From NCBI GenBank assembly GCA_902787185.1, contig CADAFP010000026.1, positions 1 through 53,290 of the forward strand: 53,290 nt of DNA, given 5' to 3'. Shown here piece after piece: positions 1 to 51,912 of this stretch; the stretch's first letter is position 1, and every line of letters begins with the position of its first letter. The position numbers and the translations under genes were made by a program. The notes under the pieces were generated by a model. The model ran no database searches. It saw only the letters and a program-made list of their open reading frames with translations, and was not told the DNA's origin. This DNA is from an uncultured Bacteroidales bacterium (GTDB taxonomy: Bacteria > Bacteroidota > Bacteroidia > Bacteroidales > Muribaculaceae).

Positions 1-165
1 AGTTAATAGTCAACTCCCTGCAGGGTTAAGCGAAAAACCATTCAACTTCTGTCAGGGATAAGGTCAAATCCATTCAACTTTTTTTAGGGTACTACAAACT
101 CTTCACTGTTCCCTGTTCACTGTTAACTCTTCACTGTTCACTGTTCACTGTTCACTGTTCACTGT
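1..165. repeat. Intergenic end region with 7-bp tandem repeat
   Basis: No gene is visible. Two loose copies of a phrase containing CCATTCAACTT lie at 49-85. From 108 onward the sequence is a degenerate tandem array of the 7-bp unit TTCACTG with variants TTAACTC and TTCCCTG. The array runs into the 3' end of the minus-strand transporter: its stop codon (166-168) and last sense codon are repeat units. The same unit recurs at 34.55 kb and 51.7-51.9 kb. Confidence 0.85.
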
Positions 166-1665
166 TCACTGCTTGGCGTGTGGTGTGGGGACGAGGATGG
201 TGAGCAGGGACGCGCCCAGGCCGTAATAGACGGCGTCGCCTGGCAGCGACAGGGCGTTAGCCACCAGCATGGCACCCACGCCCACGGGCATTGACAGCAG
301 CACGCGGCTGGGCTTAAAGCGCCCGGGGCACCACAGGGCGAAGCACAGCGGGAACATGATGGCCACGGCACGCAGGCCCAGCGACAGGAAGCCGAGGTCG
401 TTGATGAAGGCGCTGTGGAACAGCAACGTGGCAAGCACCGCCAACGTGAGGATGCCCACGATGGACAGGCGCGTCTGGGACAGTGGCGACAGCGGCGACG
501 CGGTCATTCCCATGCGTCGCTTGAAGTTGCCATACACGTCCCTCACCAGGATGGTCGCCGCGCCCAGCGACAGGCCACTGCCACACCCCAAGATGTTGAC
601 CAGCATGGTACCCAGCATTAACCCGCCAAGCCAGGCGGGGAGGTGGTGCAGGATAAACGCGGGAAACGCTTGGGCCGAGTTCTCGATGACGCCCAGCCCT
701 GCAGGCAGCGTCTCGCCAGCGGCTTGCATAGCCTTTAACTCTTCGGCGGTGACATAGTGACCGCGCATATAGATGCCCACAAGCGTGCACGCGGCGCCGA
801 TGATGGGCATGAACAGGGCACATAGCATCGAGCCACGGCGGGCCTTGCGGGTATCGGCGGCCGACCAGATGCACTGGGCATAGCTCTGCGTGCATACCAC
901 ACCCAGCACCAGCGACAGGCAGCCGCCCAAGTCCTTGAAGATGCCGCGGGCAAAGGGGGAACCATACCTGTGATGGATGCTCTCGATATCACTCAGGCCG
1001 TTAAATTGGGCGAGGGCAGGGGAGCGGTAAGCGGCGTCTAACCCATCGCGCAGCCCCGACAGCCCTCCTGCCACATGCCACACCACAATGCCCGCCGCCA
1101 GTGAGCACAGGTAGAGCAGCACCAGCTTGACGATGCCCCCGGCGCCCGCACTGCGGATGCCGCCGAACAGCACCATCAGCATGATGAGCACGGCTCCAGT
1201 GACCGATGCCCACACTGTGGACATCCCGAACAGGCTGCCAATCATTGCCGACGAGGACAGCACCTGTGACATGATGCTGATAAAGATGCCGATGAGGAAC
1301 AGCAGCGACCCCACGGTCTCGGCTTTGCGGCCATACTCGCGGCTCACCACCTCGAGCAGCGTCGTGCAGCCGCTGCGCCGCAATGGACCGGCATAGAACA
1401 GCCCCAGCACCAGCGCACCCAGGCCGGCACCGATGGTGAACCACCATGCCGACAGGCCATAGCAGAATGCCAGTTGAGCGGTCCCGATAGTGGATTGCCC
1501 GCCCGCCAGTGTGCCCAGCATCGCGCCACACACCATCCAGCTGCCGCTTGTGCCGCCGGTGGTGAAACTGTGCGCGTCCTTCACTCTCAGCGCCGACAGC
1601 CAACTCACGGCCAGCAGCAGGCCCACGGTGAGCAGGACCCCGATGATATGTACGATGGATACCAT
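166..1665 (-). CDS. Sodium:solute symporter (SSS) family protein
   Basis: About 499 residues, almost entirely hydrophobic with roughly 12-13 predicted membrane segments, typical of the SSS fold. The N-terminal half has the family look: a first helix, then a loop (TTGGTSGSWMVCGAMLGTLAG) leading into helix 2 with small residues and GGQSTIG, as in sodium-coupled transporters. The substrate cannot be read from sequence. I chose the ATG at 1665 (MVSIVHII) because it begins directly at the first membrane helix and lies downstream of a TAACTTTG box; an upstream in-frame start would add a non-hydrophobic leader overlapping the promoter. It is divergent from the PrsW-like gene. Its final codon and stop lie inside a 7-bp repeat. 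Confidence 0.85.
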   Translation of the reverse strand: MVSIVHIIGVLLTVGLLLAVSWLSALRVKDAHSFTTGGTSGSWMVCGAMLGTLAGGQSTIGTAQLAFCYGLSAWWFTIGAGLGALVLGLFYAGPLRRSGCTTLLEVVSREYGRKAETVGSLLFLIGIFISIMSQVLSSSAMIGSLFGMSTVWASVTGAVLIMLMVLFGGIRSAGAGGIVKLVLLYLCSLAAGIVVWHVAGGLSGLRDGLDAAYRSPALAQFNGLSDIESIHHRYGSPFARGIFKDLGGCLSLVLGVVCTQSYAQCIWSAADTRKARRGSMLCALFMPIIGAACTLVGIYMRGHYVTAEELKAMQAAGETLPAGLGVIENSAQAFPAFILHHLPAWLGGLMLGTMLVNILGCGSGLSLGAATILVRDVYGNFKRRMGMTASPLSPLSQTRLSIVGILTLAVLATLLFHSAFINDLGFLSLGLRAVAIMFPLCFALWCPGRFKPSRVLLSMPVGVGAMLVANALSLPGDAVYYGLGASLLTILVPTPHAKQ

Positions 1666-1686
1666 GATATTATCGTTTTCGGCCTG

Positions 1687-1725
1687 CAAAGTTACACAGA
1701 TTTTCAAGAATTATCTGTATCTTTG
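1687..1725. promoter_or_regulatory. Divergent -7 boxes for SSS transporter and PrsW gene
   Basis: Minus strand: TAACTTTG at 1694-1687, 21 nt before the transporter ATG. Plus strand: TATCTTTG at 1718-1725, 31 nt before the PrsW ATG. Both match the Bacteroidota -7 consensus TAnnTTTG; no clear -33 TTTG is seen for either. Confidence 0.55.
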
Positions 1726-1756
1726 TCAATTGTTGAATCAAAAACCGTACCTGATT

Positions 1757-2509
1757 ATGTTACTTATCGTGATTACCGCATTGTTGCCGGTGCTGATTCT
1801 CGGCTGGTGGATATATAACAAGGACTCGGCACGTCCCGAGCCGTTGAAGCAACTCATCCTGGCTTTTTCCTACGGTGTGGGCTCCACTTTCATCTCGGTC
1901 CTCATCGTGGGAGTGATGAAGGCGATGGGCCTCTTCGTTTATGACCTGGAGACCTTTACCGGCGCCGTTTCCACGGCATTGCTAGCGGCGGCAATCCCCG
2001 AAGAACTTGCCAAGCTGGCGATGCTATGGCTCTTTTTGCGCAAGAGTCTCTACTACGACGAGTACCTCGACGGCATCGTCTATGCCGCCTGTGTCGGACT
2101 CGGTTTTGCGGGAGCCGAGAACATCCTCTACCTGCTGCAGAGCGACAATTGGGTGGGTGTGGGCATCGTCAGGGGACTGACTGCTGTGCCGGCCCATTTC
2201 GCGATGGCCTGCGCCATGGGATATTTCTACAGCAAGCGCCACTTTGGCGACCGCAGCAACATCACCGCTTGCTGCATCCTTGCGGTGCCGGTCATCATCC
2301 ACTGGACGTGGGACGCGCTCGCCTTCAGTGGCGGGCTCTTGCCAGCCCTGTCGGTCGTCGTCAATGTCTTGTTTGTCGTTCTCATCTATTATCTTTACAA
2401 GAGCACTAAGCATCGCATCGCCGACCTGACGCAGCAGGACCTGGACCGCAGGACACCGCCGCCCTTCAACCAAGGTGATGGCACCTCAACGCCTCCGCCC
2501 CTGCCATGA
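1757..2509 (+). CDS. PrsW-family intramembrane protease
   Basis: A 250-residue polytopic membrane protein. Diagnostic motifs of the PrsW (CPBP-like, glutamic-type) family are visible: an EELAK motif at about residue 80 (AAIPEELAKLAMLW), a G..AGAEN helix near 120, HFAMACAMGYF near 145 and a late HWTWDAL histidine near 180. These glutamates and histidines are the residues proposed for catalysis in the family. In other bacteria PrsW cleaves anti-sigma factors; the substrate here is unknown. The tail is proline-rich (TPPPF, TPPPLP) and probably cytoplasmic. The ATG at 1757 was chosen since the protein then starts with a first helix (MLLIVITALLPVLILGWW); a longer frame upstream overlaps the promoter and the divergent gene. 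Confidence 0.85.
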   Translation: MLLIVITALLPVLILGWWIYNKDSARPEPLKQLILAFSYGVGSTFISVLIVGVMKAMGLFVYDLETFTGAVSTALLAAAIPEELAKLAMLWLFLRKSLYYDEYLDGIVYAACVGLGFAGAENILYLLQSDNWVGVGIVRGLTAVPAHFAMACAMGYFYSKRHFGDRSNITACCILAVPVIIHWTWDALAFSGGLLPALSVVVNVLFVVLIYYLYKSTKHRIADLTQQDLDRRTPPPFNQGDGTSTPPPLP

Positions 2510-2562
2510 AGCGGCCCTCAGTAAGCACCGTCATTATCTCCAGACACCAATGAAATAATTAG

Positions 2563-2844: not shown

Positions 2845-2881
2845 TAATGCTATAAGCTATTTGCTAAAAGCTAATTGCTTA
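2845..2881. repeat. Degenerate 9-10 bp repeat at a gene 3' end
   Basis: Four loose copies built on GCTA(A/T)(A/T)(A/T)GCT: GCTATAAGC, TATTTGCTAA, AAGCTAATTGC, then GCTTA. The last three bases give the TAA stop (2879-2881) of the minus-strand gene, as with other repeats of this window. Confidence 0.5.
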
Positions 2882-5019: not shown

Positions 5020-6660
5020 TTATTGGTTCTCACGACGCTTCACCAGCCGCTCATACTCGGGGTTGCCCTCGTGCAACAGGCGCTCAAACCGCTCGCGGTC
5101 GTTCAGCACCTCGACAGCAACCTTTAAATCGCGGTTGCGGTGGTTGATGATGACGTTGTAGGCGCTCTGGTCGCCATACACGTCGCGTGCGATCAAGCCT
5201 TTAATGATGTCCTTGAGCAGGCGCTCGCTGGTGCGGTATTTCTCCTCGTCATACTTGACGCTGTCATTCTCGCCCATGGCGATGAAGTCGCGCATCATCT
5301 CGTCGCTCACGACGAATCCGTTGTCAAAGTCGGCAAGCGTCTTGAATTGCTTGCTGATGGCCTTGCGGTTCTTGTCCACATACTTGATGGAGTACTGGTT
5401 CAGGATGCCCTTTGCGCTCAAGTCGCGGTAGTAGGTGCTGTACTCGCTGGTATCGACAGGAACAAACACGTCGGGCATCACGCCTCCGCCACCATAGATG
5501 GTGCGGCCATGCAGGCGCGTCGTGTAGCGCAGCGTGTCGTTAAACTGGATGCTGTCCAAGCAGTAGTATTCGCCTTCATTGTAACGGTCCACCAGCTCGT
5601 GTTCGTAGGCCTTCTTGTCACCGCGGTTGTAGGGCTTCTGGATGCAACGGCCGCTGGGCGTGTAGTAGCGGGCAACGGTTAGGCGCATCATCGAGCCGTC
5701 CTCAAACTTGAACGGACGCTGTACCAGGCCTTTGCCAAAGGTGCGGCGACCAACCACCACAGCGCGGTCCCAGTCCTGCATGGCGCCAGCGAAGATCTCG
5801 GCTGCCGAGGCCGAGTATTGGTTGACTATCACGACCATCGGCAATTCCTTATACTCGCCCCAGCCGTTGGCGTGGGCTTCGCTGCGCGGGGCGTTCTGGC
5901 CTTCGGTATAGACCAGCAACTGGCCGTGGTCCAGAAACTCGTTGCACATGTCGATGGCGGCATTCAAGTAGCCGCCGCCGTTGTCGCTCAGGTCCATCAC
6001 CAGTTGCGTCATGCCTTGTTTCTTCAACACCTTGAGGGCGTCCATCATCTCCTCGTGCGTTTTGGCGCCAAAACGCGAGATGCGCAGGTAGCCAGTGCGT
6101 TCGTCAAGCATATACTTGGCGTCGATGCTGTGCAACGGGATATTGTCGCGCGTGATGCGGAAGGTGATTAGTTCGGGCACGCCGGCACGCTTCACCTTGA
6201 TGGTGACCTGGGTGCCCTTCTTGCCGCGCAAGCGCTTCTGGATGTCGCTGTTGCGCATCTTCACGCCGGCAATCGTCGTGTCGTTGACCATGATGATGCG
6301 GTCGCCCGCCAGCACACCCACGCGCTCGCTGGGGCCGCCGGGGACGGTCTGGATGACGTAGAGCGTGTCCTGATTCATGTTGAACTGGATGCCCACGCCG
6401 CTGAACTCGCCCTGCAGCGGTTCCTCAAGTTCCTTGGTCTCTTTGGCGTCGGTATAGGAAGAGTGGGGGTCCAGGCTTTCGAGCATGCCCTTGATAGCGT
6501 CTTCCACGAGTTTCTCCTCGTTGACCGAGTCCACATACAGACTCGAGATGGCATACTCGGCATTTAACAGTTTCTGCAGCGCCTGGGGCATCGAGCGCTG
6601 GGCTGTAACGGTCATTGACAACGCCGTGAACACGGCTGCGGCAACAAATATCTTTTTCAT
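5020..6660 (-). CDS. S41 family C-terminal processing peptidase
   Basis: 546 residues with a signal peptide (MKKIFVAAAVFTALSMTVTA). Order: N-terminal helical region with LDPHSSY (about 60-70), PDZ domain (about 85-175; GVGIQFNM, GPSERVGVLAGDRI), then the S41 core (about 190-380). Catalytic serine in SASAAEIFAGA and general-base lysine in FGKGLVQ, followed by ARYYTPSGRCIQ, identify an active Ctp/tail-specific protease. It probably acts in the periplasm, trimming or degrading proteins from their C terminus. Two further paralogues sit in tandem at 46638-49881. It lies 57 bp after coaD on the same strand, so it may be read from the parE-coaD unit. Confidence 0.9.
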   Translation of the reverse strand: MKKIFVAAAVFTALSMTVTAQRSMPQALQKLLNAEYAISSLYVDSVNEEKLVEDAIKGMLESLDPHSSYTDAKETKELEEPLQGEFSGVGIQFNMNQDTLYVIQTVPGGPSERVGVLAGDRIIMVNDTTIAGVKMRNSDIQKRLRGKKGTQVTIKVKRAGVPELITFRITRDNIPLHSIDAKYMLDERTGYLRISRFGAKTHEEMMDALKVLKKQGMTQLVMDLSDNGGGYLNAAIDMCNEFLDHGQLLVYTEGQNAPRSEAHANGWGEYKELPMVVIVNQYSASAAEIFAGAMQDWDRAVVVGRRTFGKGLVQRPFKFEDGSMMRLTVARYYTPSGRCIQKPYNRGDKKAYEHELVDRYNEGEYYCLDSIQFNDTLRYTTRLHGRTIYGGGGVMPDVFVPVDTSEYSTYYRDLSAKGILNQYSIKYVDKNRKAISKQFKTLADFDNGFVVSDEMMRDFIAMGENDSVKYDEEKYRTSERLLKDIIKGLIARDVYGDQSAYNVIINHRNRDLKVAVEVLNDRERFERLLHEGNPEYERLVKRRENQ

Positions 6661-6670
6661 GCAATATTCT

Positions 6671-6712
6671 GTAATATAGTTATATAGCCTATATAGTCTA
6701 TATTGATACTTT
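6671..6712. repeat. Degenerate 9-bp repeat between coaD and S41 gene
   Basis: AATATAGTT ATATAGCCT ATATAGTCT ATATTGATA: four 9-bp units ending next to the coaD stop (6718-6720). Short, AT-rich and imperfect, but the 9-bp period matches the arrays near 14.6, 30.0 and 34.5 kb. Confidence 0.45.
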
Positions 6713-6717: not shown

Positions 6718-7215
6718 TTAAAACGCTTCCAGGTTAGTTCCCTCGGGCAGATAGCGGCTCACGTCCTGCCCATAGCGGTGCAACTCACGCACGATGCTGC
6801 TGCTGATGTGGCTGTACTCGGGCAGGGTATAGAGCAGGATGGTCTCGATGCCCGTCAGGTCGCGGTTCACCTCGGCCAGGTGCTTCTCGTTCTCGAAGTC
6901 TTGAATCAGGCGCACACCGCGCACGATGAATCCTGCGCCCACCTCGCGGGCCACGTCAACGGTCAATCCGGTGTAGGAAATGACCTCGACGCGAGGGTCG
7001 CCTTTAAACACGCTCTCAATCATCGCCTTGCGCTGCTCCATCGTCAGGAACGAACGCTTGTCGGCATTGACGCCGATGGCGATAATAAACCTGTCGAACA
7101 GCGGTAACGCGCGGCGCACAATCGACTCGTGGCCGCGGGTAAACGGGTCAAACGACCCGGGGAACAGCGCCACGCGCTTCCCTTCATTGTCAATGCACTG
7201 TGATGTCTTCATCAT
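6718..7215 (-). CDS. coaD: Phosphopantetheine adenylyltransferase
   Basis: 165 residues, the usual length is about 160. Nucleotidyltransferase signature [19 protein letters not shown] (T/HxGH motif) near the N terminus, then NADKRSFLT and the family motif Y.GL.VD.A near 80, VRGVR and the late ISSSIVRE. It catalyses the penultimate, ATP-dependent step of coenzyme A synthesis, making dephospho-CoA. The start overlaps the 3' end of parE by 26 bp, suggesting translational coupling; two adjacent ATGs (7215 and 7212) are equally possible. Confidence 0.95.
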
Positions 7216-14552: not shown

Positions 14553-14567
14553 AATGAAATATCCTCG

Positions 14568-14635
14568 TCAAATCCGTCAATCCCGTAATATCCGTTATAT
14601 CCGTCTATTCCGTTATATCCGTCATTCCCTCAAAT
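14568..14635. repeat. Degenerate 9-bp repeat in divergent promoter region
   Basis: Seven units of 9 bp on the pattern ATATCCGTT/TATTCCGTC: AAATCCGTC, AATCCCGTA, ATATCCGTT, ATATCCGTC, TATTCCGTT, ATATCCGTC, ATTCCCTCA. This is the one array clearly on the 5' side of a gene. The same unit is used at 29.98-30.03 kb. Confidence 0.75.
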
Positions 14636-16296: not shown

Positions 16297-19200
16297 TTAT
16301 CCGCGCAGGATCAGGTCAATCACCATGTTGATGTCGCTGATGTTCACAACACCGTCCTCATTCACATCGGCGGCGGGGCTGTTGGAACCCTTCAGGATCA
16401 GGTCGATGATGACGTTGATGTCGGCGATGTTCACGCTGCCGTCACCGTTCACGTCACCCTTCAAGCCGGCTGCGATCACCTTGACAAGGCAGGTAGCGGT
16501 AATCTCGGGATTGATGCTCAGGGCAGCGGTGATGGTGGCCTCGCCAGCGGCTACGCCAGTGACAACACCGTTCTCGTCAACCGTGGCGATGGTCTCGTCG
16601 CTGCTGCTCCAGATGACGGCCTTGTTGCTCAGGTCCTCGGGCGCTACAGTGGCTACGATCTCTTGGGTCTCGCCAATCTTGACCTCGATGGCTTCCTCAT
16701 TCAAGGTGATGGTGGGGGTCACTACATCGAGCACGACCGTGCCGCAAACGCCATAGGACTCAACATTCTCAACGATATAGGTGATCTCGGTGGGCATGGT
16801 GCCGTCCTCGTTGGGCTTGGCCGAGATGCACTTGATACCGCTCTTGTGCAGCGGGTTCTCGGGATTCAGGGGCAAGCTGTTGGCAATGGCTTCGCCGTCG
16901 TTGGCGGGAGCGATGTAGCTCCAATAGACGTAATTGCCGTCACCGTTAATCTGGGCCACATTGGCAATTTCACCGCTGGCCTCGGCACCCTCGAGCTTGA
17001 TGGGTGAGGCGTCGATGAGTTCGCAGTCGGCGATGCGCAGGTTCTCATTGCCCTCAATGTCGGCACCGGTCTCCATGTTCTCAATCATGTTGAGCGCGAT
17101 GCGGTAGATACCGGGAACGCACTTGCTGATGGGGTCGTTCTGCACTTGCATGTACAGGTAGCCGTTCTCATCGTCGAGATAGAAGGTCTTGATGATAACG
17201 TTCTGGAACAGGGCCTTGAAGCTCTTGGGCTTGCCCACACCGGCCTGGCTGCCGGGATAGATGTCACTCTTGGTGAAGCGCAGCAGACACAGGCCGTTGA
17301 ACTTCTTGCTCATCCAGAAGATGCCGTGCTTGTCCAGCGTGAAGCCGCCAGTGATGGAGCCCCAGCTGATCTCGTCGTTGTAGTAGGGCAGCCACTGGTT
17401 ATCTACCAGGAAGGGCTGCGAACCGTACAGACCTGTGGTGTCGGCGTTGAGTTCGTGGATACCCACGTTGCGGTCACTGATGTAAATCTTGTTCTCGTTC
17501 TCGTCGATAGACATGGTGAACGGGTCCTCGCTGGGATTGCCACCCACATTGTTCAGCACGGTCACGCGGTAGAAGATGCCGTTGGTGTTGTTCACATAGA
17601 ACAGCTCACCGTCGCCCAGGGGCTGGTTGGGATCCTGATAGGTGAAGCGCTGGCCTGCTACGGCGACATACACGCGGTTCTTGTAGCTCTGCAGCGTGAA
17701 GGCGTGCTGACCTGCATTGAAGTTGGTGTTCACGATGTTGCCCATCTCATCCTTGTACATCAGGTCGCCGTTGGTTGTGGCAAAGTACAGGCCCTCGGGG
17801 CATCCAAGCGTGGCGCCTTCGCCCGAGATGGTCTCGTCGCCAACGATGTTCAGGTAACGCCACTGGTTGGCAGCCTTGAAGGCGTCAACCGAACTGGGGG
17901 CCACCTTGCAGATGACCTCGCCCTGGCCCTCGTTGAACACACCTGCTGCAAGGGCGGGAGGATTCACGTTGAGCACGCGCAGCGACTTGATGGTCACGGG
18001 AACCGAACCAGGCTCCATATAGTTGACGTTGGCGGGAATTTCCATCTCCTCCAGCATGGTGCAACCCTCAAAGCAGTTGCGCATCATGTTGGTGGCCGTG
18101 CTGGGCAGCGTCACGTGCTCGAGCTGCGTGCACTGGGCGCACAGGCCCTGAGGAATCTCGTTGCGGCCCTCGGCAATGACAATCACCTTGAGTGCCGAAC
18201 CGGCAAACAGGTTTTGGCCAACGGTGACATGAGCATCAAGCGTGTAGGTCTCGATGTCGCTGTAGGCGAAGCCGTAGTTACCGATATTGGTCAAGGCGGG
18301 CAGGTCAACGCTGGTAAATGGCGCGTAAGCCAGGCCGTAGTTGTCGATGCTGGTCACCGTGGGGTTGCTGTAGGTGGTGGCAAGGTTGCCCTCGTGGGCC
18401 GATACCAGCAGGCGGTTACCGGCGGCATTCAGCAGCACGCCATCGATGAGCTGGAAACTCGGATTGCCCTCAGCCAGGGTGATGTTGGCGAGGGTGGGGA
18501 TGGGGGCAAACGCTCCTTGGCCGATGCTGGTCACGCTGGCGGGGATGCTAACGCCCGTCAGGCGGGTGTTGGCAAACGCCTGGATGCCGATGGCGGTCAG
18601 GCTGCCGGGCAGCACGATGTCGCCTGCCAGCGGACTGTTCTCAAAGGCGCTCTGGCCAATCGAGGTCAACGCGCTGGGGAAGGTGAACGACGTCAAGCCC
18701 GTGTTGTAGAATGCGGTGATGCCGATGCTCGTCACCCCGTCACCCATGGTAGCGTAGCGCAGGTTGCGGCAACCGTTGAATGTGCTTTGCTCGATGGTGG
18801 TGACAGCAGCGGGAATGTCGATGCCGGTCAGCGATGAGCAGCCCATAAACACGCTACCGCCAATGCTGACCACCTTGTTGCCTTCCTCAAAGGTCACCGT
18901 CTCCAGTGCCGTGCAGCCCTGGAACGCGGTACTCTGGATGCTGTCGGTCTCGCCGCCAATAACCAGCGTTTTCAAGGCGCCCATGTTGTGGAATGGCTTC
19001 TCATTGTTGAGGTAAAGGTGAGCGTCAACCTTGCGGCCCATATAGATGTACTCGATGCTGTTGAGTGCCACGCGGGCATCGCTGTTGGCACCAAAGGCAT
19101 TGATCTTCATCTCAACGGGTGTCGGGCCGTCGGCGATGATGAGGCGCTTCAGGTTAGGACAGTTGGCAAACTCCTCGCTCACAGGCTTTTTCCAGCCAGC

Positions 19201-19659
19201 AACGATGGTAACCTGCTCAAGGCTGGAACAGCCGTTGAACACACCGCTGCCCACGCTTGTCGCTGTCTCGGGAATCGGGTCGTTAGTCAGGCTCGAACAC
19301 CCCTTGAAGCAGTTGCGGCCGATGGTGACACAGGTGGCGGGCAGCGAAATCGTCGTCACGTCCTTGCAGTCAACAAAGGCGTTTGTCGCCGTGGCAACCA
19401 CGGTATATTCCACGCCCTCATAGGTGACCTTCTCGGGAATCACGATGTCGCCGGTGTAGAACAACGTGTCGGCGGGCTGGTCGCCGCTCGCTTTGATGAT
19501 AGTGTACTTGGCAACGGTGGCGGTGCCGTCGGTCTTGGTCGTGTAGTTGATGCCGTCAACGGTGATGTTGGCTGCCTGTACCGCCGTCAGTGCGGCAAGG
19601 CATCCCGCTATCAGCAGCAGACGCCGCGACAATAGTCTTGTGGTAACTGATTTTTTCAT
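16297..19659 (-). CDS. Secreted BspA-like leucine-rich repeat protein with Ig-like and dockerin-like domains
   Basis: 1120 residues. Signal peptide (LLLIAGCLAALTAVQA). From about 60 to 600 there are many BspA/TpLRR repeats with FxGCSSL, IGxxAFxN and ITSIGxxAF motifs, typical of Bacteroidales and spirochaete surface adhesins. The middle (about 620-960) is a beta-propeller-like region with repeated strands (ENKIYISDRNVGIHEL, GFTLDKHGIFWMSKK). A Big_2 bacterial Ig domain follows (about 965-1045; VIWSSSDETIATVDENGVV). The C terminus is a two-repeat dockerin-like Ca-binding module (GDVNGDGSVNIADINVIIDLIL and DVNEDGVVNISDINMVIDLIL). Probably cell-surface or secreted, binding host or dietary ligands. 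Confidence 0.9.
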   Translation of the reverse strand: MKKSVTTRLLSRRLLLIAGCLAALTAVQAANITVDGINYTTKTDGTATVAKYTIIKASGDQPADTLFYTGDIVIPEKVTYEGVEYTVVATATNAFVDCKDVTTISLPATCVTIGRNCFKGCSSLTNDPIPETATSVGSGVFNGCSSLEQVTIVAGWKKPVSEEFANCPNLKRLIIADGPTPVEMKINAFGANSDARVALNSIEYIYMGRKVDAHLYLNNEKPFHNMGALKTLVIGGETDSIQSTAFQGCTALETVTFEEGNKVVSIGGSVFMGCSSLTGIDIPAAVTTIEQSTFNGCRNLRYATMGDGVTSIGITAFYNTGLTSFTFPSALTSIGQSAFENSPLAGDIVLPGSLTAIGIQAFANTRLTGVSIPASVTSIGQGAFAPIPTLANITLAEGNPSFQLIDGVLLNAAGNRLLVSAHEGNLATTYSNPTVTSIDNYGLAYAPFTSVDLPALTNIGNYGFAYSDIETYTLDAHVTVGQNLFAGSALKVIVIAEGRNEIPQGLCAQCTQLEHVTLPSTATNMMRNCFEGCTMLEEMEIPANVNYMEPGSVPVTIKSLRVLNVNPPALAAGVFNEGQGEVICKVAPSSVDAFKAANQWRYLNIVGDETISGEGATLGCPEGLYFATTNGDLMYKDEMGNIVNTNFNAGQHAFTLQSYKNRVYVAVAGQRFTYQDPNQPLGDGELFYVNNTNGIFYRVTVLNNVGGNPSEDPFTMSIDENENKIYISDRNVGIHELNADTTGLYGSQPFLVDNQWLPYYNDEISWGSITGGFTLDKHGIFWMSKKFNGLCLLRFTKSDIYPGSQAGVGKPKSFKALFQNVIIKTFYLDDENGYLYMQVQNDPISKCVPGIYRIALNMIENMETGADIEGNENLRIADCELIDASPIKLEGAEASGEIANVAQINGDGNYVYWSYIAPANDGEAIANSLPLNPENPLHKSGIKCISAKPNEDGTMPTEITYIVENVESYGVCGTVVLDVVTPTITLNEEAIEVKIGETQEIVATVAPEDLSNKAVIWSSSDETIATVDENGVVTGVAAGEATITAALSINPEITATCLVKVIAAGLKGDVNGDGSVNIADINVIIDLILKGSNSPAADVNEDGVVNISDINMVIDLILRG

Positions 19660-25662: not shown

Positions 25663-25760
25663 AGATGCCTAAAACAACAAGTTGTTCCTGTTGTTCAATG
25701 TTGTTCAAGTTGTTTGATAAGTTGCCTGATAAGTTGTTTGAGAATTAATGGTTGTTTGAT
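25663..25760. repeat. Degenerate GTTGTT-based repeat reaching into the ATPase 3' end
   Basis: About eight imperfect copies, 9-12 bp, of (A)AGTTGTT(C/T)(C/G)A-type units. The array covers the TAA stop (25745-25747) of the minus-strand ATPase and the codons for its last residues Asn-Asn-His (CAT, AAC, AAC read on the minus strand). Confidence 0.7.
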
Positions 25761-27658: not shown

Positions 27659-27710
27659 TTATGTTTTCTCTAATTTTTGGGAAAATCCTCCCTCACAACT
27701 TCCATATCCC

Positions 27711-27748
27711 CTAAAGCCTAAAACCTAAAACCTAAAGCCTAAAGCCTA
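27711..27748. repeat. 7-bp CCTAAAA/CCTAAAG repeat at glycosyltransferase 3' end
   Basis: Five to six units CCTAAAG/CCTAAAA. The TAG stop (27746-27748, minus strand) of the GT2 gene is part of the last unit. Confidence 0.75.
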
Positions 27749-28726
27749 ATAAATCAAACGTGCGACACGTGCCGACCCGCGTTTCCCCGAAGCGATGCGG
27801 GCGAACAGGCGGCGTGTCACGGGTGCGACAAACCATCGCCAGCGTCGTGAATTGCTGTAGCTTTTCCCTAAAGCGTGGTAGGCTTGCTGGCAAAGCGGCT
27901 TGGCCAGTTCGGAATGCCCTTCGCGCTCATACTGTGCGGCGAGCACCAAGCGGCGGTAATGCAGCAACCGCTCAAAGCGGCGTTTGTGTTCGGGTTTGAG
28001 TTTAGAGCAGCGCACCTCGTTCAGCATGACGTCGATGACGTGCTCCCACCTTCCCTGGCGGCTATGGAACTCGGTGCCCGTGATGGAGTCGGCACCGTTA
28101 TGATTGATGATGACGTGCGACTTGCCGCGGTTATAGGCGACACGGGGGGCCGCCAGCAACAGCCGCAGTCCCAGTTCCCAGTCGTTCCACCCGGGCAGGT
28201 CGATGTTCCAGCCATCGGTCGAGGCAAAGAACTCCCGCCTCACGGCATAGCGTTGTGTTGCCAATTGTCCGTGCAGGATGTGGTTGGCAAACAGGTCGCC
28301 CTTGTGGAAAGGCGCTTGACGGCTGCTGCCGTCAGGGAATACGAGTGTTGAGCGGGAACTGATCAGGTCCAGCGTCTTCCCTTTTTTCGCGGCGCGTTCA
28401 ATCACGTGCACGTAGGACTCCACCAGTTCAGGCTCCATCACGTCGTCGCTGTCAAAGAACAGCACCCACTCGCCCGTAGCGTGCTCAAATCCGCGGTTGC
28501 GGGCGGCACCGGCGGTGTGGTGGCTCTCGCTGGTAATGACCACATTGAACCCGTCGCCGGGATGCTCCTTCTTGAAGGTCTCCAGCACCTGCATCGTGTC
28601 GTCGGTGCTGTCATTATCCACCAGCACCAACTGCAGCGGGCGGTGAGTTTGTGCAACGACGCTCTCCAAGGTCTCCTTGACGATGGCGGCACGGTTATAT
28701 ACGGGTATGATGACGGTGACTTCCAT
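27746..28726 (-). CDS. Family 2 glycosyltransferase
   Basis: 326 residues. GT-A fold start MEVTVIIPVYNRAAIVKETL, DNDSTDDT, AARNRGFEHATGEWVLFFDSDD with the DxD metal/nucleotide-sugar motif, then DLPGWNDWELGLRLL, the ED/WE acceptor region. The C-terminal 100 residues are Arg/Lys-rich and helical. It probably adds a sugar to a surface polysaccharide or lipid. The start at 28726 is chosen because the GT2 fold begins there and a consensus promoter lies immediately upstream; a longer frame would run through the divergent gene's promoter. Confidence 0.88.
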   Translation of the reverse strand: MEVTVIIPVYNRAAIVKETLESVVAQTHRPLQLVLVDNDSTDDTMQVLETFKKEHPGDGFNVVITSESHHTAGAARNRGFEHATGEWVLFFDSDDVMEPELVESYVHVIERAAKKGKTLDLISSRSTLVFPDGSSRQAPFHKGDLFANHILHGQLATQRYAVRREFFASTDGWNIDLPGWNDWELGLRLLLAAPRVAYNRGKSHVIINHNGADSITGTEFHSRQGRWEHVIDVMLNEVRCSKLKPEHKRRFERLLHYRRLVLAAQYEREGHSELAKPLCQQAYHALGKSYSNSRRWRWFVAPVTRRLFARIASGKRGSARVARLIY

Positions 28727-29973: not shown

Positions 29974-30031
29974 ATTGATTCCGTAATATCCGTAAAATCC
30001 GTTATCTCCGTCCTCTCCGTCTATTCCGTCA
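29974..30031. repeat. 9-bp repeat next to amylase stop
   Basis: Six units: ATTCCGTAA, TATCCGTAA, AATCCGTTA, TCTCCGTCC, TCTCCGTCT, ATTCCGTCA. The last base pairs touch the amylase stop (30032-30034). Same unit family as at 14568-14635. Confidence 0.8.
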
Positions 30032-34493: not shown

Positions 34494-34500
34494 TCTCTTT

Positions 34501-34587
34501 AGCCCCTATAGCCCCTATAGCCCCTATAGCCCCTATAGCCTCTATAGTTTCTGTTAACTGTTCACTATTCACTATTAACTGTTCTCT
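34501..34587. repeat. Compound 9-bp and 7-bp tandem repeats between convergent genes
   Basis: 34501-34545 holds five 9-bp units AGCCCCTAT (the fifth AGCCTCTAT). 34550-34587 holds the 7-bp family TGTTAACTG, TTCACTA, TTCACTA, TTAACTG, TTCTCT. The latter covers the TAA stop of the M15 peptidase (34575-34577) and its last codons. Confidence 0.85.
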
Positions 34588-35546
34588 ATATAAAAGGCAT
34601 AGTACTCATCATAGGTGATTCCCTCGTCGTGGACGCGGGTCGCCGTCTTCACGCCCACATAGCGCAGGTGCCATGGCTCATAGCTGTAGCCCAGGATGTG
34701 CGATTGCTTTTTGGGATAACGCAGGATGAAGCCGTACTTGTGGCAGTTTTCCCGCATCCAAACCCCCTCCGCTGAGGTGTCGAATGGCCCTCGCATGGGA
34801 TGCTGCAACGACGTGATGTCGAGGGCAAGGCCTGTCTGATGCTCGCTTTTTCCAGCTCGAGCGACAAACCGCTTGTCGTTGCGCTTGTAGGTCGAAATCT
34901 GTTGCTGAAAAGAACGATAGGCCGAATTGACCATCAGTTGTGCGCCCGTCTGCTGTTTGCAGTCCTCTTGCATGGCCACGAAAGCCTCGACCGCTGCGCT
35001 GTCGGCCTTGTTTTCCTCATAGGTGAAGTTCTTGTTGATAGTTACCAGATGGCGTGGCTTGTAGTTCTCGTCAAGGTAATGGAGCCGGTTGACCAGCATC
35101 AGGTAGCCCTTGGTGGTGTCGCAATGCGTTGCGTACTCCTCAGGGTCAAGGTCGCGCCCCACGTTGACCACGGCGATGATGTCGCTTGTCGAGGCGCCCA
35201 GCGTATCCCTCTTGTGATAGGCGAGGTAGCGGTCAAAGTTGGCGGCGATGAAATAGCGCTCCTTGACGAGGGGAACGGCAAGGGTGTCATGCTCTTGACG
35301 GGCGATGAGGCTATCGGCCTGAGCCTCGTTAAGCACCGTTACCAGCAAGCGGGCCTCCTCGAGAGGGTAGCCCAGGCGGTTAATTTTGTGCTCATTGCTG
35401 TTGAGGTACACGATGCCCTGGCAACTCTTGACCGCAACTGCCAGAACCAGCAGGGCCGCAATGGTGCATGGCACCGCCAGCCAGCGGTTGTCGCGGCCAG
35501 TCCAGGTCTTGAAGAATTGTTTGATGTGTAGCAATGTCTCGTGCAT
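34575..35546 (-). CDS. M15 family D-alanyl-D-alanine carboxypeptidase-like protein
   Basis: 323 residues. A membrane anchor near the N terminus (about 22-45, WLAVPCTIAALLVLAVAV) and a VanY-type domain at the C terminus (about 200-310). Zinc-site motifs are intact: SEHQTGLALDI (His and Asp) and EPWHLRYVG (catalytic Glu, His). Such enzymes trim cell-wall peptides in the periplasm. The middle (about 50-190) has no recognised domain. The stop lies in a 7-bp repeat, and the last residues (Asn-Ser) are repeat-encoded. Ends 3 bp before msrA (minus strand order msrA, then this). Confidence 0.88.
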   Translation of the reverse strand: MHETLLHIKQFFKTWTGRDNRWLAVPCTIAALLVLAVAVKSCQGIVYLNSNEHKINRLGYPLEEARLLVTVLNEAQADSLIARQEHDTLAVPLVKERYFIAANFDRYLAYHKRDTLGASTSDIIAVVNVGRDLDPEEYATHCDTTKGYLMLVNRLHYLDENYKPRHLVTINKNFTYEENKADSAAVEAFVAMQEDCKQQTGAQLMVNSAYRSFQQQISTYKRNDKRFVARAGKSEHQTGLALDITSLQHPMRGPFDTSAEGVWMRENCHKYGFILRYPKKQSHILGYSYEPWHLRYVGVKTATRVHDEGITYDEYYAFYIENS

Positions 35547-39402: not shown

Positions 39403-39427
39403 ACTCCTAATTTCTAATTTCTAACTG
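39403..39427. repeat. Short 7-bp CTAATTT repeat
   Basis: CTCCTAA TTTCTAA TTTCTAA CTG, between the binding-protein stop and the permease start. It resembles the array at 49896-49938. Confidence 0.55.
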
Positions 39428-48270: not shown

Positions 48271-49881
48271 TTAGTCCATAATCGGGAAGGCAGCTTTGTG
48301 CTTGTTCAGCGCTTTCAGGGCGGCCTGAACGGTCTTGTCTTGGCGGTTCAAAATCGGGTAGAGCGCCTCGTTGCCAAAGATGTCGCGCGCTATCAGCGCC
48401 TTCAGGTTGGTCACAATCACGTTCTGTGACTGGTTGATGTAGTACCATCGCGGCGGAATGCCGTTAGCGGCGGCAAAGTCGGCAAAGTCTCTCGTCAACG
48501 CCTCATCGCTCGGGGCGGTGCGCAGGAACTGGTTGTAGTCTTCGAGTTTGTTGAGCGCGGCGCGGTTGTTGTTGCAGTAATTGAAGGCATAGCGTTGCAG
48601 CAGGCCAGCGTTCATCACCTCGATATAGTAGCTCGAGATGCCGCTGGTGTCGCGGGGAACAAACAGGTCAGGAATGATGCCCCCACCGCCATACACGGTG
48701 CGGCCGTGCAACGTCCTGTACACCTTGCTCTTATCGATTTTAATGCTGTCGCGGCTGAAGAGTTCGCCATTCTTGCGGTAGCGGTTCAGCATCTCTTGCT
48801 CATAGTCCTTGTAATCCTTCTGGATGCAGCGGCCGCTGGGGGTGTAGTAACGGGCGGTCGTCAGGCGGATGGCACTGCTGTCGGGCAGCACAAATTCCTT
48901 CTGCACCAAGCCCTTACCGAACGAGCGGCATCCCACAATCAGGCCACGGTCATTGTCCTGCAGGGCTCCGGCAAAAATCTCGCTGGCGCTGGCGCTGAAC
49001 TCGTCGATGAGCACTGCCACCTCGGCATCCTGGAAGGATCCGTTGCCGTCGCTCCACACTTCACCATCGTCACGTTTGTAACGGCCCTTGGTGAACACGA
49101 TGGGCTGGTCGGCGGGCAGGAACTCGTTGACCATCAGCACCGCCATCTCCATAAAGCCGCCGCCGTTGCCGCGCAGGTCTATCATATAACGCTTGGCACC
49201 TTCTTCCTGAAGGCTCGCCATCGCGGTGATAAATTCGTCATAGGTGTGGCGCCCGAACTGGTTCACCTTGATGTATCCCGTGTTCTTGTCAATCATGTAG
49301 AAGGCGTCCACGGTATTGACGGGAATGTCGCCGCGGGTCACGGTAAAGTTCAGCAACTTGCTGGAACTTTGGCGCTTAATGCCCAATTTCACCTTGGTGC
49401 CTTTGTTGCCGCGCAGGCGCTTCATCACCTCGCCGTTGGTCATCTTGGAACCGGTGGCGACCGAGTCGTCAATCATGACAATCTTGTCACCCGCCATCAG
49501 TCCCACTTTCTCGCTGGGACCGCCGGGAATGACCTCCACAACGCCGATAGTGTCGTTGACCATGACAAACGAGATGCCGATGCCGCTGAACGAGCCGTTC
49601 AGGTCCTCGGTGGACGCTTTAAGCTCATCGGTGCTGAAGTAGTTGGTGTGGGGATCCAGCTTGCTCAGGATTTGAGGGATGCTCATCTCGATGAGGTCGT
49701 GCATGTTGGTCGTGTCAACATAGTCCTGCGCAATCAGGTTAAGGATCGCGTTGAGTTTGCGGTCGTTTTCGGCAACAGGCTTGTTGGCGGCGAAACGACT
49801 GCCTATAAAGATGCCCACCACCACCGCCGCGGCTATGGCGAGGGGTAACCAGATGGGTTGACGTGTGGACTTCTGTTTCAT
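48271..49881 (-). CDS. S41 family peptidase, membrane-anchored (first of tandem pair)
   Basis: 536 residues. N-terminal anchor (WLPLAIAAAVVVGIFIG), LDPHTNYFSTDEL, PDZ (GIGISFVMVNDT, GPSEKVGLMAGDKIVMIDD), S41 core with SASASEIFAGA, SFGKGLVQ and ARYYTPSGRCIQ. ATG at 49881 is preferred: the longer frame would need a TTG at 49902 that lies in the 7-bp repeat next door. Downstream of the dCMP deaminase gene, a Bacteroidota arrangement. Confidence 0.92.
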   Translation of the reverse strand: MKQKSTRQPIWLPLAIAAAVVVGIFIGSRFAANKPVAENDRKLNAILNLIAQDYVDTTNMHDLIEMSIPQILSKLDPHTNYFSTDELKASTEDLNGSFSGIGISFVMVNDTIGVVEVIPGGPSEKVGLMAGDKIVMIDDSVATGSKMTNGEVMKRLRGNKGTKVKLGIKRQSSSKLLNFTVTRGDIPVNTVDAFYMIDKNTGYIKVNQFGRHTYDEFITAMASLQEEGAKRYMIDLRGNGGGFMEMAVLMVNEFLPADQPIVFTKGRYKRDDGEVWSDGNGSFQDAEVAVLIDEFSASASEIFAGALQDNDRGLIVGCRSFGKGLVQKEFVLPDSSAIRLTTARYYTPSGRCIQKDYKDYEQEMLNRYRKNGELFSRDSIKIDKSKVYRTLHGRTVYGGGGIIPDLFVPRDTSGISSYYIEVMNAGLLQRYAFNYCNNNRAALNKLEDYNQFLRTAPSDEALTRDFADFAAANGIPPRWYYINQSQNVIVTNLKALIARDIFGNEALYPILNRQDKTVQAALKALNKHKAAFPIMD

Positions 49882-49895
49882 CGGTTTAAAAGAAT

Positions 49896-49938
49896 TCTCC
49901 AATTCCTAATTCCTAACTTCTAACTCCTAACTTTTAAC
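49896..49938. repeat. 7-bp TCCTAAT/TTCTAAC repeat at dCMP deaminase 3' end
   Basis: Units ATTCCTA, ATTCCTA, ACTTCTA, ACTCCTA, ACTTTTA, ACTG. The TAG stop (49927-49929) and codons for the last residues Val-Lys-Ser are inside the array. Confidence 0.8.
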
Positions 49939-50442
49939 TGACTCTCGTGCCACTTCCTGATAATGGCTCTCGCTGTTCTCGACGGTGATGGGCACTTGCT
50001 CATACTCGCCGTCACGCTTCCACAGGTGAATCACCTCGATGCCCGCGCGGCACAGCAGGTCAACACCGTCGTGCATGCGGTAATACTCGCCGAACACCAC
50101 GCGCCGGATGCCGGCCTGGATGATAAGTTTGCTGCACTCCATGCAGGGCGAGGTGGTGACATACAAGGTCGCGCCGTCGCTGCTGTTGTTGCTGCGGGCC
50201 ACCTTGGTGATGGCGTTGGCCTCGGCATGCAGCACATAGGGCTTGGAGTGGTCGGCGTCTTCCTCACACACGTTCTCAAACCCCGAAGGCGTGCCGTTGT
50301 AGCCGTCACTGATGATCATCTTGTCCTTGACCAGCAACGCGCCCACTTGGCGGCGGCGGCAATATGAGTTTTCGGCCCAAATCTGCGTCATGCGCAGGTA
50401 TCTGGAGTCGAGTATCAACTGTTTTTTCTCGCGAGAGTCCAT
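49927..50442 (-). CDS. Deoxycytidylate (dCMP) deaminase family protein
   Basis: 171 residues. Zinc-dependent cytidine deaminase fold: HAEANAI (His zinc ligand and catalytic Glu), then TSPCMECSKLII (two Cys ligands). NGTPSGFENVCEED upstream is the dCMP-deaminase/ComE-type substrate loop with an extra Cys. It makes dUMP for thymidylate synthesis. ATG at 50442 is preferred over a GTG three codons upstream. The C-terminal tail is encoded by repeat DNA. Confidence 0.93.
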   Translation of the reverse strand: MDSREKKQLILDSRYLRMTQIWAENSYCRRRQVGALLVKDKMIISDGYNGTPSGFENVCEEDADHSKPYVLHAEANAITKVARSNNSSDGATLYVTTSPCMECSKLIIQAGIRRVVFGEYYRMHDGVDLLCRAGIEVIHLWKRDGEYEQVPITVENSESHYQEVARESVKS

Positions 50443-50461
50443 TCGTATCACTTTTAATCGG

Positions 50462-50469
50462 CAAAATTA
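50462..50469 (-). promoter_or_regulatory. -7 box of dCMP deaminase gene
   Basis: TAATTTTGCC on the minus strand, 19 nt before the ATG. Confidence 0.5.
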
Positions 50470-50749: not shown

Positions 50750-50781
50750 TTTGCCCATTCTACGTCTAATATATAAATTTG
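50750..50781 (+). promoter_or_regulatory. Promoter of OmpA-family gene
   Basis: TTTG (50750-50753), 20 nt, TAAATTTG (50774-50781), 39 nt before the ATG at 50821. Confidence 0.75.
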
Positions 50782-50820
50782 CAAAAACTAATGAGATTAT
50801 TTACTTATTTATTCACTAAT

Positions 50821-51675: not shown

Positions 51676-51679
51676 CACA

Positions 51680-51712
51680 ACCCAGTTAACAGTTAAAAGT
51701 GAACAGTGAACA
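51680..51712. repeat. 7-bp repeat, inverted orientation
   Basis: CAGTTAACAGTTAAAAGTGAACAGTGAACAA: the reverse complement of the array that follows the terminator, starting 5 nt after the OmpA stop. Confidence 0.7.
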
Positions 51713-51714
51713 AT

Positions 51715-51754
51715 TGGCATCCGCACCCCTACAATAACAGGCGTGCGGATGCCA
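51715..51754 (+). terminator. Terminator of OmpA-family gene
   Basis: TGGCATCCGCAC / GTGCGGATGCCA, 12 bp, 16-nt loop, followed by TCTGTTTGC. Flanking inverted repeats could extend the stem considerably. Confidence 0.75.
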
Positions 51755-51761
51755 TCTGTTT

Positions 51762-51912
51762 GCTAACTGTTCACTATTCACTGTTAACGGTTAACTATTA
51801 ACTGTTCACTATTAACTGTTCACTCTTCACTGTTCACTGTTCACTGTTCACTGTTCACTGTTAACTGTTCACTGTTAACTGTTCACTGTTAACTGTTCAC
51901 TGTTAACTGTCT
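51762..51912. repeat. Large 7-bp TTCACTG/TTAACTG array
   Basis: About 21 tandem units alternating TTCACTG, TTAACTG, TTCACTA and TTAACGG across 150 bp. It lies between the OmpA terminator and the sigma factor gene, whose upstream DNA shows no consensus promoter outside the array. Confidence 0.9.

What the first reader, a model, noticed from the sequence alone, without database searches (positions are those of the whole stretch)
108..51912. Degenerate 7- and 9-bp intergenic repeats that supply stop codons
At least ten sites carry tandem units of 7 bp (TTCACTG, CCTAAAG, ATTCCTA) or 9 bp (ATATCCGTT, AGCCCCTAT, CTATATAGT): 108-171, 2845-2881, 6671-6712, 14568-14635, 25663-25760, 27711-27748, 29974-30031, 34501-34587, 39403-39427, 49896-49938 and 51680-51912. 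Units differ between sites yet share period and a pyrimidine-C-T style. At six sites on the minus strand (166, 2879, 25745, 27746, 34575, 49927) the stop codon lies in the array. Inference: a replication-slippage or template-switch process seeded at gene ends, or selection for repeats that build a 3' end. I know of no named repeat class that fits.
Basis: partly seen in the sequence, partly recalled or inferred. Interest (0 to 1): 0.72.

Follow-up and report, generated by a model that had tools for sequence, protein, structure and literature searches.

The report
Stop-bearing heptad arrays at gene ends
Between its genes this uncultured gut bacterium carries many short tandem repeats, mostly seven letters long, that tend to point away from the genes and sometimes contain the gene's stop codon; repeats of this kind are known in other bacteria, but here the units are several and differ between sister species.

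Summary
The arrays are real and genome-wide. In 851 kb of this genome (an uncultured Bacteroidales MAG), period 7 gives 72 intergenic and 2 coding arrays, period 9 gives 14 and 4, and periods 8, 10 and 11 give none. Of 458 stop codons facing gaps of at least 40 bp, 26 lie inside a heptad array; 17 of those 26 are TAG, against 59 of 432 elsewhere. Of 78 arrays in co-directional gaps, 37 lie within 10 bp of the stop (15.3±3.0 expected from uniform placement). Units have a conserved core (such as TTAG or CTATAG) and variable spacers, mostly read outward from genes, are rare in divergent gaps, and partly form inverted pairs. Sister species use different units. Published GGGAATC heptads of Xanthomonas and Nostoc share this layout, and TAACTGA heptads share part of it, so this is a new variant of heptanucleotide repeats. 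Best reading: recurrent template switching or slippage anchored on the core, with stop supply a consequence. The outward polarity is unexplained.

The parts
98..171 (-). Heptad array (ACTGTTC on +, GAACAGT in gene sense), 10.6 copies; holds the TGA stop (166-168) of the SSF symporter gene 166-1689(-)
2848..2879 (-). 14-bp repeat TGCTAAAAGCTAAT, 2.3 copies, touching the TAA stop (2879-2881) of the cleaved-adhesin gene
6681..6703 (.). Short 9-bp array TATATAGCC, 2.6 copies, between the stop at 6718 and the start of the S41 peptidase gene (ORF 5020-6660)
14566..14635 (.). Loose 9-bp TCCGT-N4 array between divergent genes
25681..25741 (-). Mixed 9-/12-bp repeats ending 3 bp from the TAA stop (25745-25747) of the P-type ATPase gene
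27710..27749 (-). Heptad array CCTAAAG (CTTTAGG in gene sense), 5.7 copies; holds the TAG stop (27746-27748) of a glycosyltransferase gene
29980..30021 (-). 9-bp TCCGT-N4 array, 10 bp from the stop of the alpha-amylase gene (30032)
34497..34547 (.). 9-bp CTATAG-N3 array (CTATAGCCC), about 5 copies, between convergent genes
34551..34589 (-). Heptad array (ACTATTC/CTGTTAA on +); holds the TAA stop (34575-34577) of the VanY-type carboxypeptidase gene; the orthologous RUG12777 gap is 12 bp with no heptad array
39407..39424 (+). Weak heptad array CTAATTT, 2.6 copies, in the 28-bp gap between Peripla_BP_2 and FecCD genes
49901..49939 (-). Heptad array (TTAGGAG/TTAGAAG in gene sense); holds the TAG stop (49927-49929) of a deaminase gene; stands where four relatives have a different, array-less C-terminal tail
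51683..51712 (+). Stop-side heptad arm CAGTTAA/CAGTGAA, 7 bp after the OmpA gene stop
51716..51753 (.). Hairpin GGCATCCGC...GCGGATGCC between the two inverted heptad arms
51766..51910 (+). Inverted heptad arm ACTGTTM, 20.7 copies, opposite the 51683-51712 arm

Best explanation
These are fast-changing tandem arrays with a 7-bp (less often 9-bp) step that occupy spaces between genes. Shown: the step, the place, the outward polarity near genes, the conserved core with variable spacers, a set of units shared across the genome, and array-supplied stop codons. Inferred: new units arise by replication template switching or slippage in which a 4-6-nt core (TTAG, ACTGTT, AACTGA, CTATAG, TCCGT) is the re-annealing anchor, so cores persist and spacers drift; units may also pass between loci in patches of one to three units, for which the evidence is weak. 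Genes limit where arrays can grow. At the 3' end arrays can run into the gene because almost every heptad carries a stop codon and a 7-bp step puts it in all three frames, so the old stop and a few C-terminal residues can be replaced. Supplying stops is then a consequence and a licence to grow, not the purpose. This model does not explain the outward polarity; RNA stem-loops may contribute.
For: Period spectrum: p7 72 intergenic against 2 coding; p8, p10, p11 none; p9 14 and 4; shuffled intergenic DNA 0.1 against 48 in the first 453 kb. The 7-bp excess recurs in 72 named loci outside the nearest group (31, against 7 for p8, 3 for p11, 2 for p9, 0 for p10; genic and intergenic together). In 15 of 17 orthologous gaps with an array in one species only, that gap is the longer, median 63 bp. 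Stops inside arrays: TAG 17 of 26 against 59 of 432 elsewhere (Fisher p 1e-8). Array-coded C-terminal tails. Core against spacer mismatch rates: TTAG .07/.04/.01/.03, other positions .15/.18/.23. Two arrays of this genome share a unit with probability .058 against .0015 for random intergenic heptamers. Exact 21-mers are shared by 135 locus pairs here against 98 in unit-order shuffles (maximum 116 of 40). Units differ at 7 of 9 sites that bear arrays in both sister species (my reading). Units two apart are more alike than expected, 166 against 137±8.4.
Against: Adjacent units are not more alike than random ones (160 against 156±8.5), core mismatches are not concentrated at array ends, and array-less gene ends show no TTAGG seed words; plain local slippage predicts the opposite. 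Patch exchange is not seen in RUG12777 (21-mers 63, shuffle maximum 65), and 28-mers are in range in both genomes. Outward polarity (63:9 on the stop side) is not predicted. No strain-level copy-number change could be examined, because only one genome per species was at hand. Template switching itself was not observed.
Confidence: 0.47

Rival explanations
1. The arrays are selected RNA elements: inverted arms (TTAGG... ...CCTAA) form stem-loops between stop and start codons, acting on termination, mRNA ends or uncoupling of neighbouring genes.
For: Gaps with two or more arrays fold more stably with native than with flipped array orientation (30 against 9 of 41; single arrays 60 against 37 of 99). 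Arrays are rare in divergent gaps here (2 of 74) beside 12 of 67 convergent and 55 of 324 co-directional ones. Cores are constrained. Arm pairs in RUG12777 are more complementary than partner-shuffled ones (2 of 200 shuffles as low).
Against: In this genome partner shuffling explains the complementarity (43 of 200). Of 26 orthologous gaps with an array in either species, 17 have it in one only. TTAGGNN counts run from 0 to 363 between close sisters (G002, G035). Some arms abut start codons, where a stem should hinder initiation. Single arrays predominate (99 gaps against 41). In the small G033 sample 3 of 15 divergent gaps have arrays.
Confidence: 0.27
2. The arrays are selected to supply back-up stop codons in all reading frames (near to the reader's second option).
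For: Units read in gene sense contain a stop in 194 of 215 arrays against 81 expected from array-less intergenic heptamers; units with a sense stop only outnumber those with an antisense stop only, 41 to 17. Mismatches on the stop side spare the stop word: 125 windows without a stop against 395 when the same changes are re-dealt (minimum 314). This sparing is clear only with arrays touching genes included: for the 39 stop-side arrays more than 3 bp from a gene it is 67 against 105, inside the shuffle range (minimum 58).
Against: On the start side it is the antisense word that is spared (32 against 100, minimum 37), also away from genes (27 against 88, minimum 54), and not the sense stop (140 against 172, inside the range). 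ATG and CAT are avoided alike relative to array-less intergenic heptamers. Antisense stops are enriched too (170 against 78). Nonamer arrays show no stop excess (25 of 50 against 22). Array stops are mostly TAG, the genome's rarest stop.
Confidence: 0.1
3. Units are added by a trans-acting templated activity (telomerase-like reverse transcription) whose template differs between species.
For: Genome-wide shared units without long shared blocks, nearly independent neighbouring units and no local seeds, and species with sharply different unit sets (AACTGAN 1 here against 223 in G009; GGACTAN 93 against 5). A bacterial RT that makes tandem-repeat DNA is reported (DRT10, PMC12632851, preprint; passages only).
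Against: No such RT or template RNA was sought here. Several different cores coexist in one genome. Spacers vary, whereas a template would fix them. The passages seen describe cDNA for phage defence, not chromosomal arrays.
Confidence: 0.04
4. Assembly or binning artefact of a MAG.
For: The genome is an 81%-complete draft of 102 contigs.
Against: The complete chromosome of the isolate Prevotella communis E15-14 shows a p7 excess too (400 kb: 14 intergenic and 10 coding; other periods 0-4 intergenic except the double period 14) and 6 stops inside arrays. Array sites coincide between two separate MAGs more than chance (9 shared of 26, odds ratio 6.8).
Confidence: 0.02

Closest known systems
GGGAATC / GGGGA(C/T)T heptad repeats of Xanthomonas and Nostoc (Rehm et al. 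2015, PMC4692102; sections 10, 13, 16 and passages read)
   Same: 7-bp step; core plus variable positions (GGGANTN in Xanthomonas); mostly intergenic; within 50 bp of the stop on the coding strand or of the start on the non-coding strand, including the repeats over stop codons; convergent inverted pairs; few between divergent genes; length and sequence vary between related species
   Different: That paper studies one G-quadruplex-forming unit type per genome; here several cores coexist, the commonest units have no GGG tract, and there is a 9-bp class, so quadruplexes cannot be the general reason for the layout
TAACTGA direct repeats of Beggiatoaceae, Cyanobacteria and some Bacteroidetes (MacGregor 2015, PMC4679880; abstract, sections 7, 12, 15 and passages read)
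   Same: Heptad; mostly intergenic; stops in all three frames; [quoted passage not shown] the AACTGAN family of other species of this genus includes TAACTGA units
   Different: That paper follows one unit, mostly forward upstream of start codons; here there are many units and the stop side is the stronger in this genome
Long simple sequence repeats of 5-11 bp in prokaryotes (Mrazek et al. 2007, known here only through passages of PMC4679880 and PMC4692102)
   Same: Heptanucleotides are reported as the most abundant class in most genomes rich in such repeats; polymerase slippage proposed
   Different: No gene-end polarity, core/spacer constraint or species-specific unit sets in the passages seen
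DRT10 tandem-repeat synthesis (PMC12632851, preprint, passages only)
   Same: Short tandem units with a re-alignment sequence needed for repeat addition; 9-nt step in one system
   Different: cDNA made by a defence system; no chromosomal arrays in the passages read; no link tested here

Membership tests
Heptanucleotide long simple sequence repeats | Tandem 7-bp units far above chance | tested here: met
   48 against 0.1 per shuffle in 453 kb; 72 intergenic in 851 kb
Heptanucleotide long simple sequence repeats | Mostly intergenic, no other basic period as frequent | tested here: met
   p7 72 intergenic / 2 coding; p8, p10, p11 0/0; p9 14/4; in P. communis p7 is 14/10, less clearly intergenic
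Heptanucleotide long simple sequence repeats | Copy-number change by slippage | not testable with these tools
   One genome per species; adjacent-unit similarity gave no one-unit slippage signal
GGGAATC-type heptads | G-richer strand reads away from the gene at both ends | tested here: met
   Genus set, 5 bp or less: 77 outward, 18 inward at stops; 16 and 5 at starts. Exceptions: starts at 21-50 bp 2 and 6; stops beyond 50 bp 5 and 6; P. communis starts 2 and 5; G015 stop side 1 and 6
GGGAATC-type heptads | Under-represented between divergent genes | tested here: met
   2 of 74 divergent, 12 of 67 convergent, 55 of 324 co-directional gaps; RUG12777 3 of 40, 4 of 34, 33 of 130; against it the small G033 sample, 3 of 15, 2 of 12, 4 of 49
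GGGAATC-type heptads | GGG tracts able to form G-quadruplexes | tested here: not met
   The four commonest units AAGGACT, AAAGCCT, AACTCCT, AACAGTG have no GGG on either strand (units; read off by eye)
TAACTGA repeats | Unit TAACTGA in tandem in this genome | tested here: not met
   AACTGAN x3: 1 match here; present in other genus members, for example G001 and G015, with TAACTGA units
TAACTGA repeats | Mostly just upstream of start codons, forward | tested here: not met
   11 of 78 co-directional arrays within 10 bp of a start against 37 at stops
RAYT/REP elements | Abundance follows RAYT (Y1_Tnp) genes | tested here: not met
   Spearman 0.12, p 0.49 over 37 genomes, four heptad families summed
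Telomerase-like (DRT10) products | Cognate RT and template RNA | not tested

The most novel reading that the evidence does not exclude
A cell-wide activity with a species-specific anchor or template builds heptad and nonad arrays at gene borders, adding units one by one from a common pool, so that sister species differ in unit set at many loci at once. The like layout in Bacteroidales, Xanthomonas and Nostoc would then reflect one general, undescribed DNA process.
Probability: 0.08. Interest if true: 0.9.

Novelty: new variant of a known kind. Interest (0 to 1): 0.52.

Why it matters
Heptad arrays with the same step, outward polarity, inverted pairs and rarity in divergent gaps are on record in distant phyla with an unrelated unit. 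This case, with several cores in one genome and different ones in sister species, separates the layout from the unit sequence. It makes G-quadruplexes, or one horizontally spread TAACTGA unit, unlikely as general causes, and makes the old question of why bacteria prefer 7-bp repeats testable in culturable Prevotella. It also shows a way in which gene 3' ends and stop codons can turn over.

Tried and rejected
RRM RNA-binding proteins as readers of UUAG: PF00076 matched in 0 of 37 genus genomes; among 14 control genomes it matched Bacteroides ihuae and Synechococcus elongatus. RAYT-type transposases as drivers: no correlation. Rfam: no match in the window at gathering thresholds. Long block copying between loci: 28-, 35- and 42-mers are in the shuffle range in both genomes tested. 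Unit-set test on samples of seven genomes: within-genome unit sharing .047 against .021 between genomes, but 200 of 1000 label permutations reach it, so not significant; the claim of species-specific units rests on whole-genome pattern counts, which count overlapping matches, not arrays. Decayed arrays in array-less gaps: no residual period 7, largest z 1.3. Directional growth: no mismatch gradient along 95 arrays (.106 gene-proximal.104 distal). Selection against start codons: ATG and CAT are avoided alike against array-less heptamers. The plain share of stops within 10 bp of an array (50 of 458.109) against random interior intergenic positions (.086) is unimpressive, because an edge can be reached from one side only; the placement test is the fairer one and I rely on it. 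P. communis placement counts (12 stop, 10 start of 19; 8.8±1.1 expected) are weak for stops over starts. The TCCGT pattern as I wrote it found 0 matches in this genome and matches in 5 of 61 genomes, so that family's wider spread is not shown. In the tree rows G004 and G005 were taken in a wrong frame and should be ignored, and 7 of 37 genomes are missing because loci were capped at 30 or matches were partial. Gene calls come from my own hexamer scorer: starts are approximate (the ATPase start is called at 27598 although an in-frame ATG stands at 27658), and the lower coding share of the second fetch (.824 overall against .860 for the first 453 kb) means some gaps may hold uncalled genes. Papers seen in passages only and not used as support: PMC11697453 (RbpB), PMC4060949 (which notes 6-11-bp repeats over-represented in intergenic DNA of a few archaea).
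Full report
WHAT IS THERE. The window is contig C26 of a 3.22-Mb, 81%-complete draft of 102 contigs. Its nearest named relatives at one deaminase gene are the Bacteroidales MAGs L009-L016 (88-95% identity); 7 of these 8 bear ruminant-gut or RUG names (RUG taken from recall as a rumen series). Seven period-7 and three period-9 arrays pass a threshold at which 30 block-shuffled windows give means of 0.07 and 0.03. The stop codons at 166, 27746, 34575 and 49927 lie inside arrays; those at 2879 and 25745 lie at an array's edge, outside it.

GENOME SCALE. I fetched 798 kb more of this genome, 400 kb of the RUG12777 genome behind L009, 400 kb of the complete chromosome of the isolate Prevotella communis E15-14 behind L084 and 160 kb each of five unnamed genus members. 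Genes were called with my own hexamer scorer. Intergenic/coding array counts in this genome (score 14 or more) are 72/2 for period 7, 14/4 for period 9 and 0/0 for periods 8, 10 and 11. Dinucleotide-shuffled intergenic DNA gave 0.1 against 48 in the first 453 kb. RUG12777 gives 45/3 and P. communis 14/10 for period 7; P. communis also has 4 intergenic arrays each of period 8 and 11. Period 7 leads in 72 named loci across Bacteroidales (31, against 7 for period 8, 3 for period 11, 2 for period 9, 0 for period 10; genic and intergenic together). So it is not merely a MAG artefact.

PLACE. At a slightly looser threshold, arrays occur in 55 of 324 co-directional, 12 of 67 convergent and 2 of 74 divergent gaps of 40 bp or more; in RUG12777 33 of 130, 4 of 34 and 3 of 40. 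The small G033 sample goes against this (4 of 49, 2 of 12, 3 of 15). Among 78 arrays in co-directional gaps, 37 lie within 10 bp of the stop and 11 within 10 bp of the start; uniform placement predicts 15.3±3.0 for each. RUG12777 gives 25 and 19 of 48 (14.3±2.4), P. communis 12 and 10 of 19 (8.8±1.1). The five small genus samples give 4 of 8, 4 of 8, 3 of 5, 8 of 17 and 5 of 6 at stops against 1.3, 1.8, 0.7, 2.5 and 3.0.

STOP CODONS. Of 458 stops facing gaps of 40 bp or more, 26 lie inside a heptad array: 17 TAG, 6 TAA, 3 TGA, against 59 TAG, 256 TAA and 117 TGA elsewhere. RUG12777 has 11 (6 TAG, 4 TGA, 1 TAA) and P. communis 6 (4 TGA, 2 TAA). Orthologous pairs show tails changing. At the deaminase gene four relatives (L010, L011, L014, L015) end in tails such as QYLSTQQ without an array, while the window and L009 end in array-coded residues (sequences, translated by eye). 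Of 110 own/RUG ortholog pairs compared, 16 have the stop in an array in one species only; 7 of these 16 keep the same stop codon, against 59 of 92 pairs without arrays, and the last eight columns are .70 (5 pairs) and .59 (11 pairs) identical against .74; the groups are small and were not tested. Read in gene sense, 194 of 215 heptad units of the genus set contain a stop, against 81 expected from array-less intergenic heptamers; by distinct unit it is 68 of 83 against 31. Antisense stops are enriched too (170 against 78), and nonamers show no such excess (25 of 50 against 22).

CORE AND SPACER. Mismatches inside arrays avoid a core: TTAG .068/.041/.012/.032 against .147/.182/.229 at the three other positions. 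CTATAG repeats every 9 bp with a freely varying N3, TCCGT every 9 bp with N4, TTAGG every 7 bp with N2. When the same base changes are re-dealt within each array, stop-side windows without a sense stop number 125 observed against 395 (minimum 314 in 200 shuffles). On the start side the antisense word is spared (32 against 100, minimum 37) and the sense stop is not (140 against 172, minimum 128). Dropping arrays within 3 bp of a gene, the stop-side sense effect shrinks to 67 against 105 (minimum 58, so in range), while the start-side antisense effect stays (27 against 88, minimum 54). Thus much of the constraint follows the motif rather than translation, but part of the stop-side constraint is concentrated where arrays touch genes, which favours some selection for stops there.

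POLARITY AND INVERTED PAIRS. Read in gene sense, stop-side arrays are G-richer than C in 63 against 9 (RUG12777 28 against 7), and start-side arrays lean the other way (11:16 and 3:16). Put as 'G-richer strand points away from the gene', the genus counts within 5 bp are 77:18 at stops and 16:5 at starts; at 21-50 bp from starts it is 2:6, and beyond 50 bp from stops 5:6. P. communis agrees at stops (10:3) but not at starts (2:5), and the small G015 sample is opposite at stops (1:6). Of 140 array-bearing non-divergent gaps of 40-500 bp, 41 hold two or more arrays; native orientation folds better than flipped in 30 against 9 of these, and in 60 against 37 of the 99 with one (examples). Arm complementarity exceeds partner shuffling in RUG12777 (2 of 200) but not in this genome (43 of 200).

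TURNOVER. In 76 orthologous gaps between this genome and RUG12777 (128 reciprocal best hits at median 87% identity), 9 have arrays in both, 6 only here, 11 only there and 50 in neither (odds ratio 6.8, p 0.002). In 7 of the 9 shared sites the consensus units differ in family by my reading. Whole-genome pattern counts differ sharply between close species: TTAGGNN 355 here, 0 to 363 in the genus; AACTGAN 1 here and 223 in G009, whose parE is 97% identical; GGACTAN 93 and 5. A test of unit sharing on the smaller samples was not significant. Two arrays of this genome share a unit with probability .058 against .0015 for random intergenic heptamers. Long exact blocks are not shared between loci beyond unit-order shuffles (28-mers 26 against 16, maximum 29); 21-mers are in excess here (135 against 98, maximum 116) but not in RUG12777 (63 against 50, maximum 65). 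Adjacent units are not more alike than random ones (160 against 156±8.5), units two apart are (166 against 137±8.4), array-less gene ends carry no excess of TTAGG seed words, and array-less gaps show no residual periodicity.

INTERPRETATION. The pattern needs a process that makes 7- or 9-bp steps in gaps between genes, keeps a short core, draws on units common to the genome and leaves neighbouring units nearly independent. Template switching or slippage anchored on the core fits most of this; plain local slippage does not, and exchange of small patches between loci is only hinted at in one genome. Gene-end invasion can be tolerated because heptads carry stops in every frame. The outward polarity is not explained; stem-loop formation is the leading candidate and also the main rival as a function. 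A telomerase-like templated process, of the kind reported for DRT10 (PMC12632851, preprint, passages), is a bold alternative that I could not test.

KNOWN RELATIVES. MacGregor 2015 (PMC4679880; abstract, sections 7, 12 and 15, passages) describes TAACTGA heptads, with 13 forward sets over upstream stop codons and occurrences in five Bacteroidetes. Rehm et al. 2015 (PMC4692102; sections 10, 13, 16 and passages) describe GGGAATC-type heptads with the same layout, including outward polarity, inverted pairs and rarity between divergent genes. Mrazek 2007 was seen only through these papers. Full-text searches of the held library for heptads in Prevotella, Bacteroidales or Bacteroidetes listed nothing nearer by title (in only 15 of 19 and 8 of 49 papers were listed). 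The finding is thus a new variant of a known kind. What it adds is several cores without G-quadruplex tracts, core/spacer constraint and species-specific unit sets, which separate the layout from any one unit.

Noticed in passing
window 51716-51753; also G000:C10:59319, C18:14823, C51:282, C51:4582, C83:1064: A dispersed hairpin GGCATCCGC-N-GCGGATGCC: 6 exact places in this genome and 1-5 in 9 of the 24 other genus genomes searched. The window copy lies between inverted heptad arms; partial forms do so in gaps of L095, L101, L104 and L106.
   Followed up: partly
window 27606-27653: A 6/12-bp repeat (TCGTGT...) lies in the 5' end of the P-type ATPase ORF 25745-27658 and would code a His/Glu-rich N-terminus (read by eye); my gene caller trimmed it.
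   Followed up: no
window 16297-19659: A 1120-aa protein with BspA-type leucine-rich repeats, a Big_2 domain and a C-terminal type I dockerin.
   Followed up: no
window 5020-6660 and 48271-49902: Two S41 peptidase/PDZ genes; the second follows the deaminase gene, and the DNA after the deaminase looks alike in L009-L016 (by eye).
   Followed up: no
L040, L082, L034, L060, L072, L086: Some Prevotella-type loci carry period-8 arrays (4, 2, 1, 1, 1 and 1 at score 12), a period with no array in the 851 kb of this genome.
   Followed up: no
G062 (RUG12777): 123 matches to the reversed control word AGTTTNNAGTTTNNAGTTT show a large family of AAACTNN-type heptads.
   Followed up: partly
37 genus genomes: No RRM_1 match in any of 37 genus genomes, although a Bacteroides control genome has one.
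   Followed up: no
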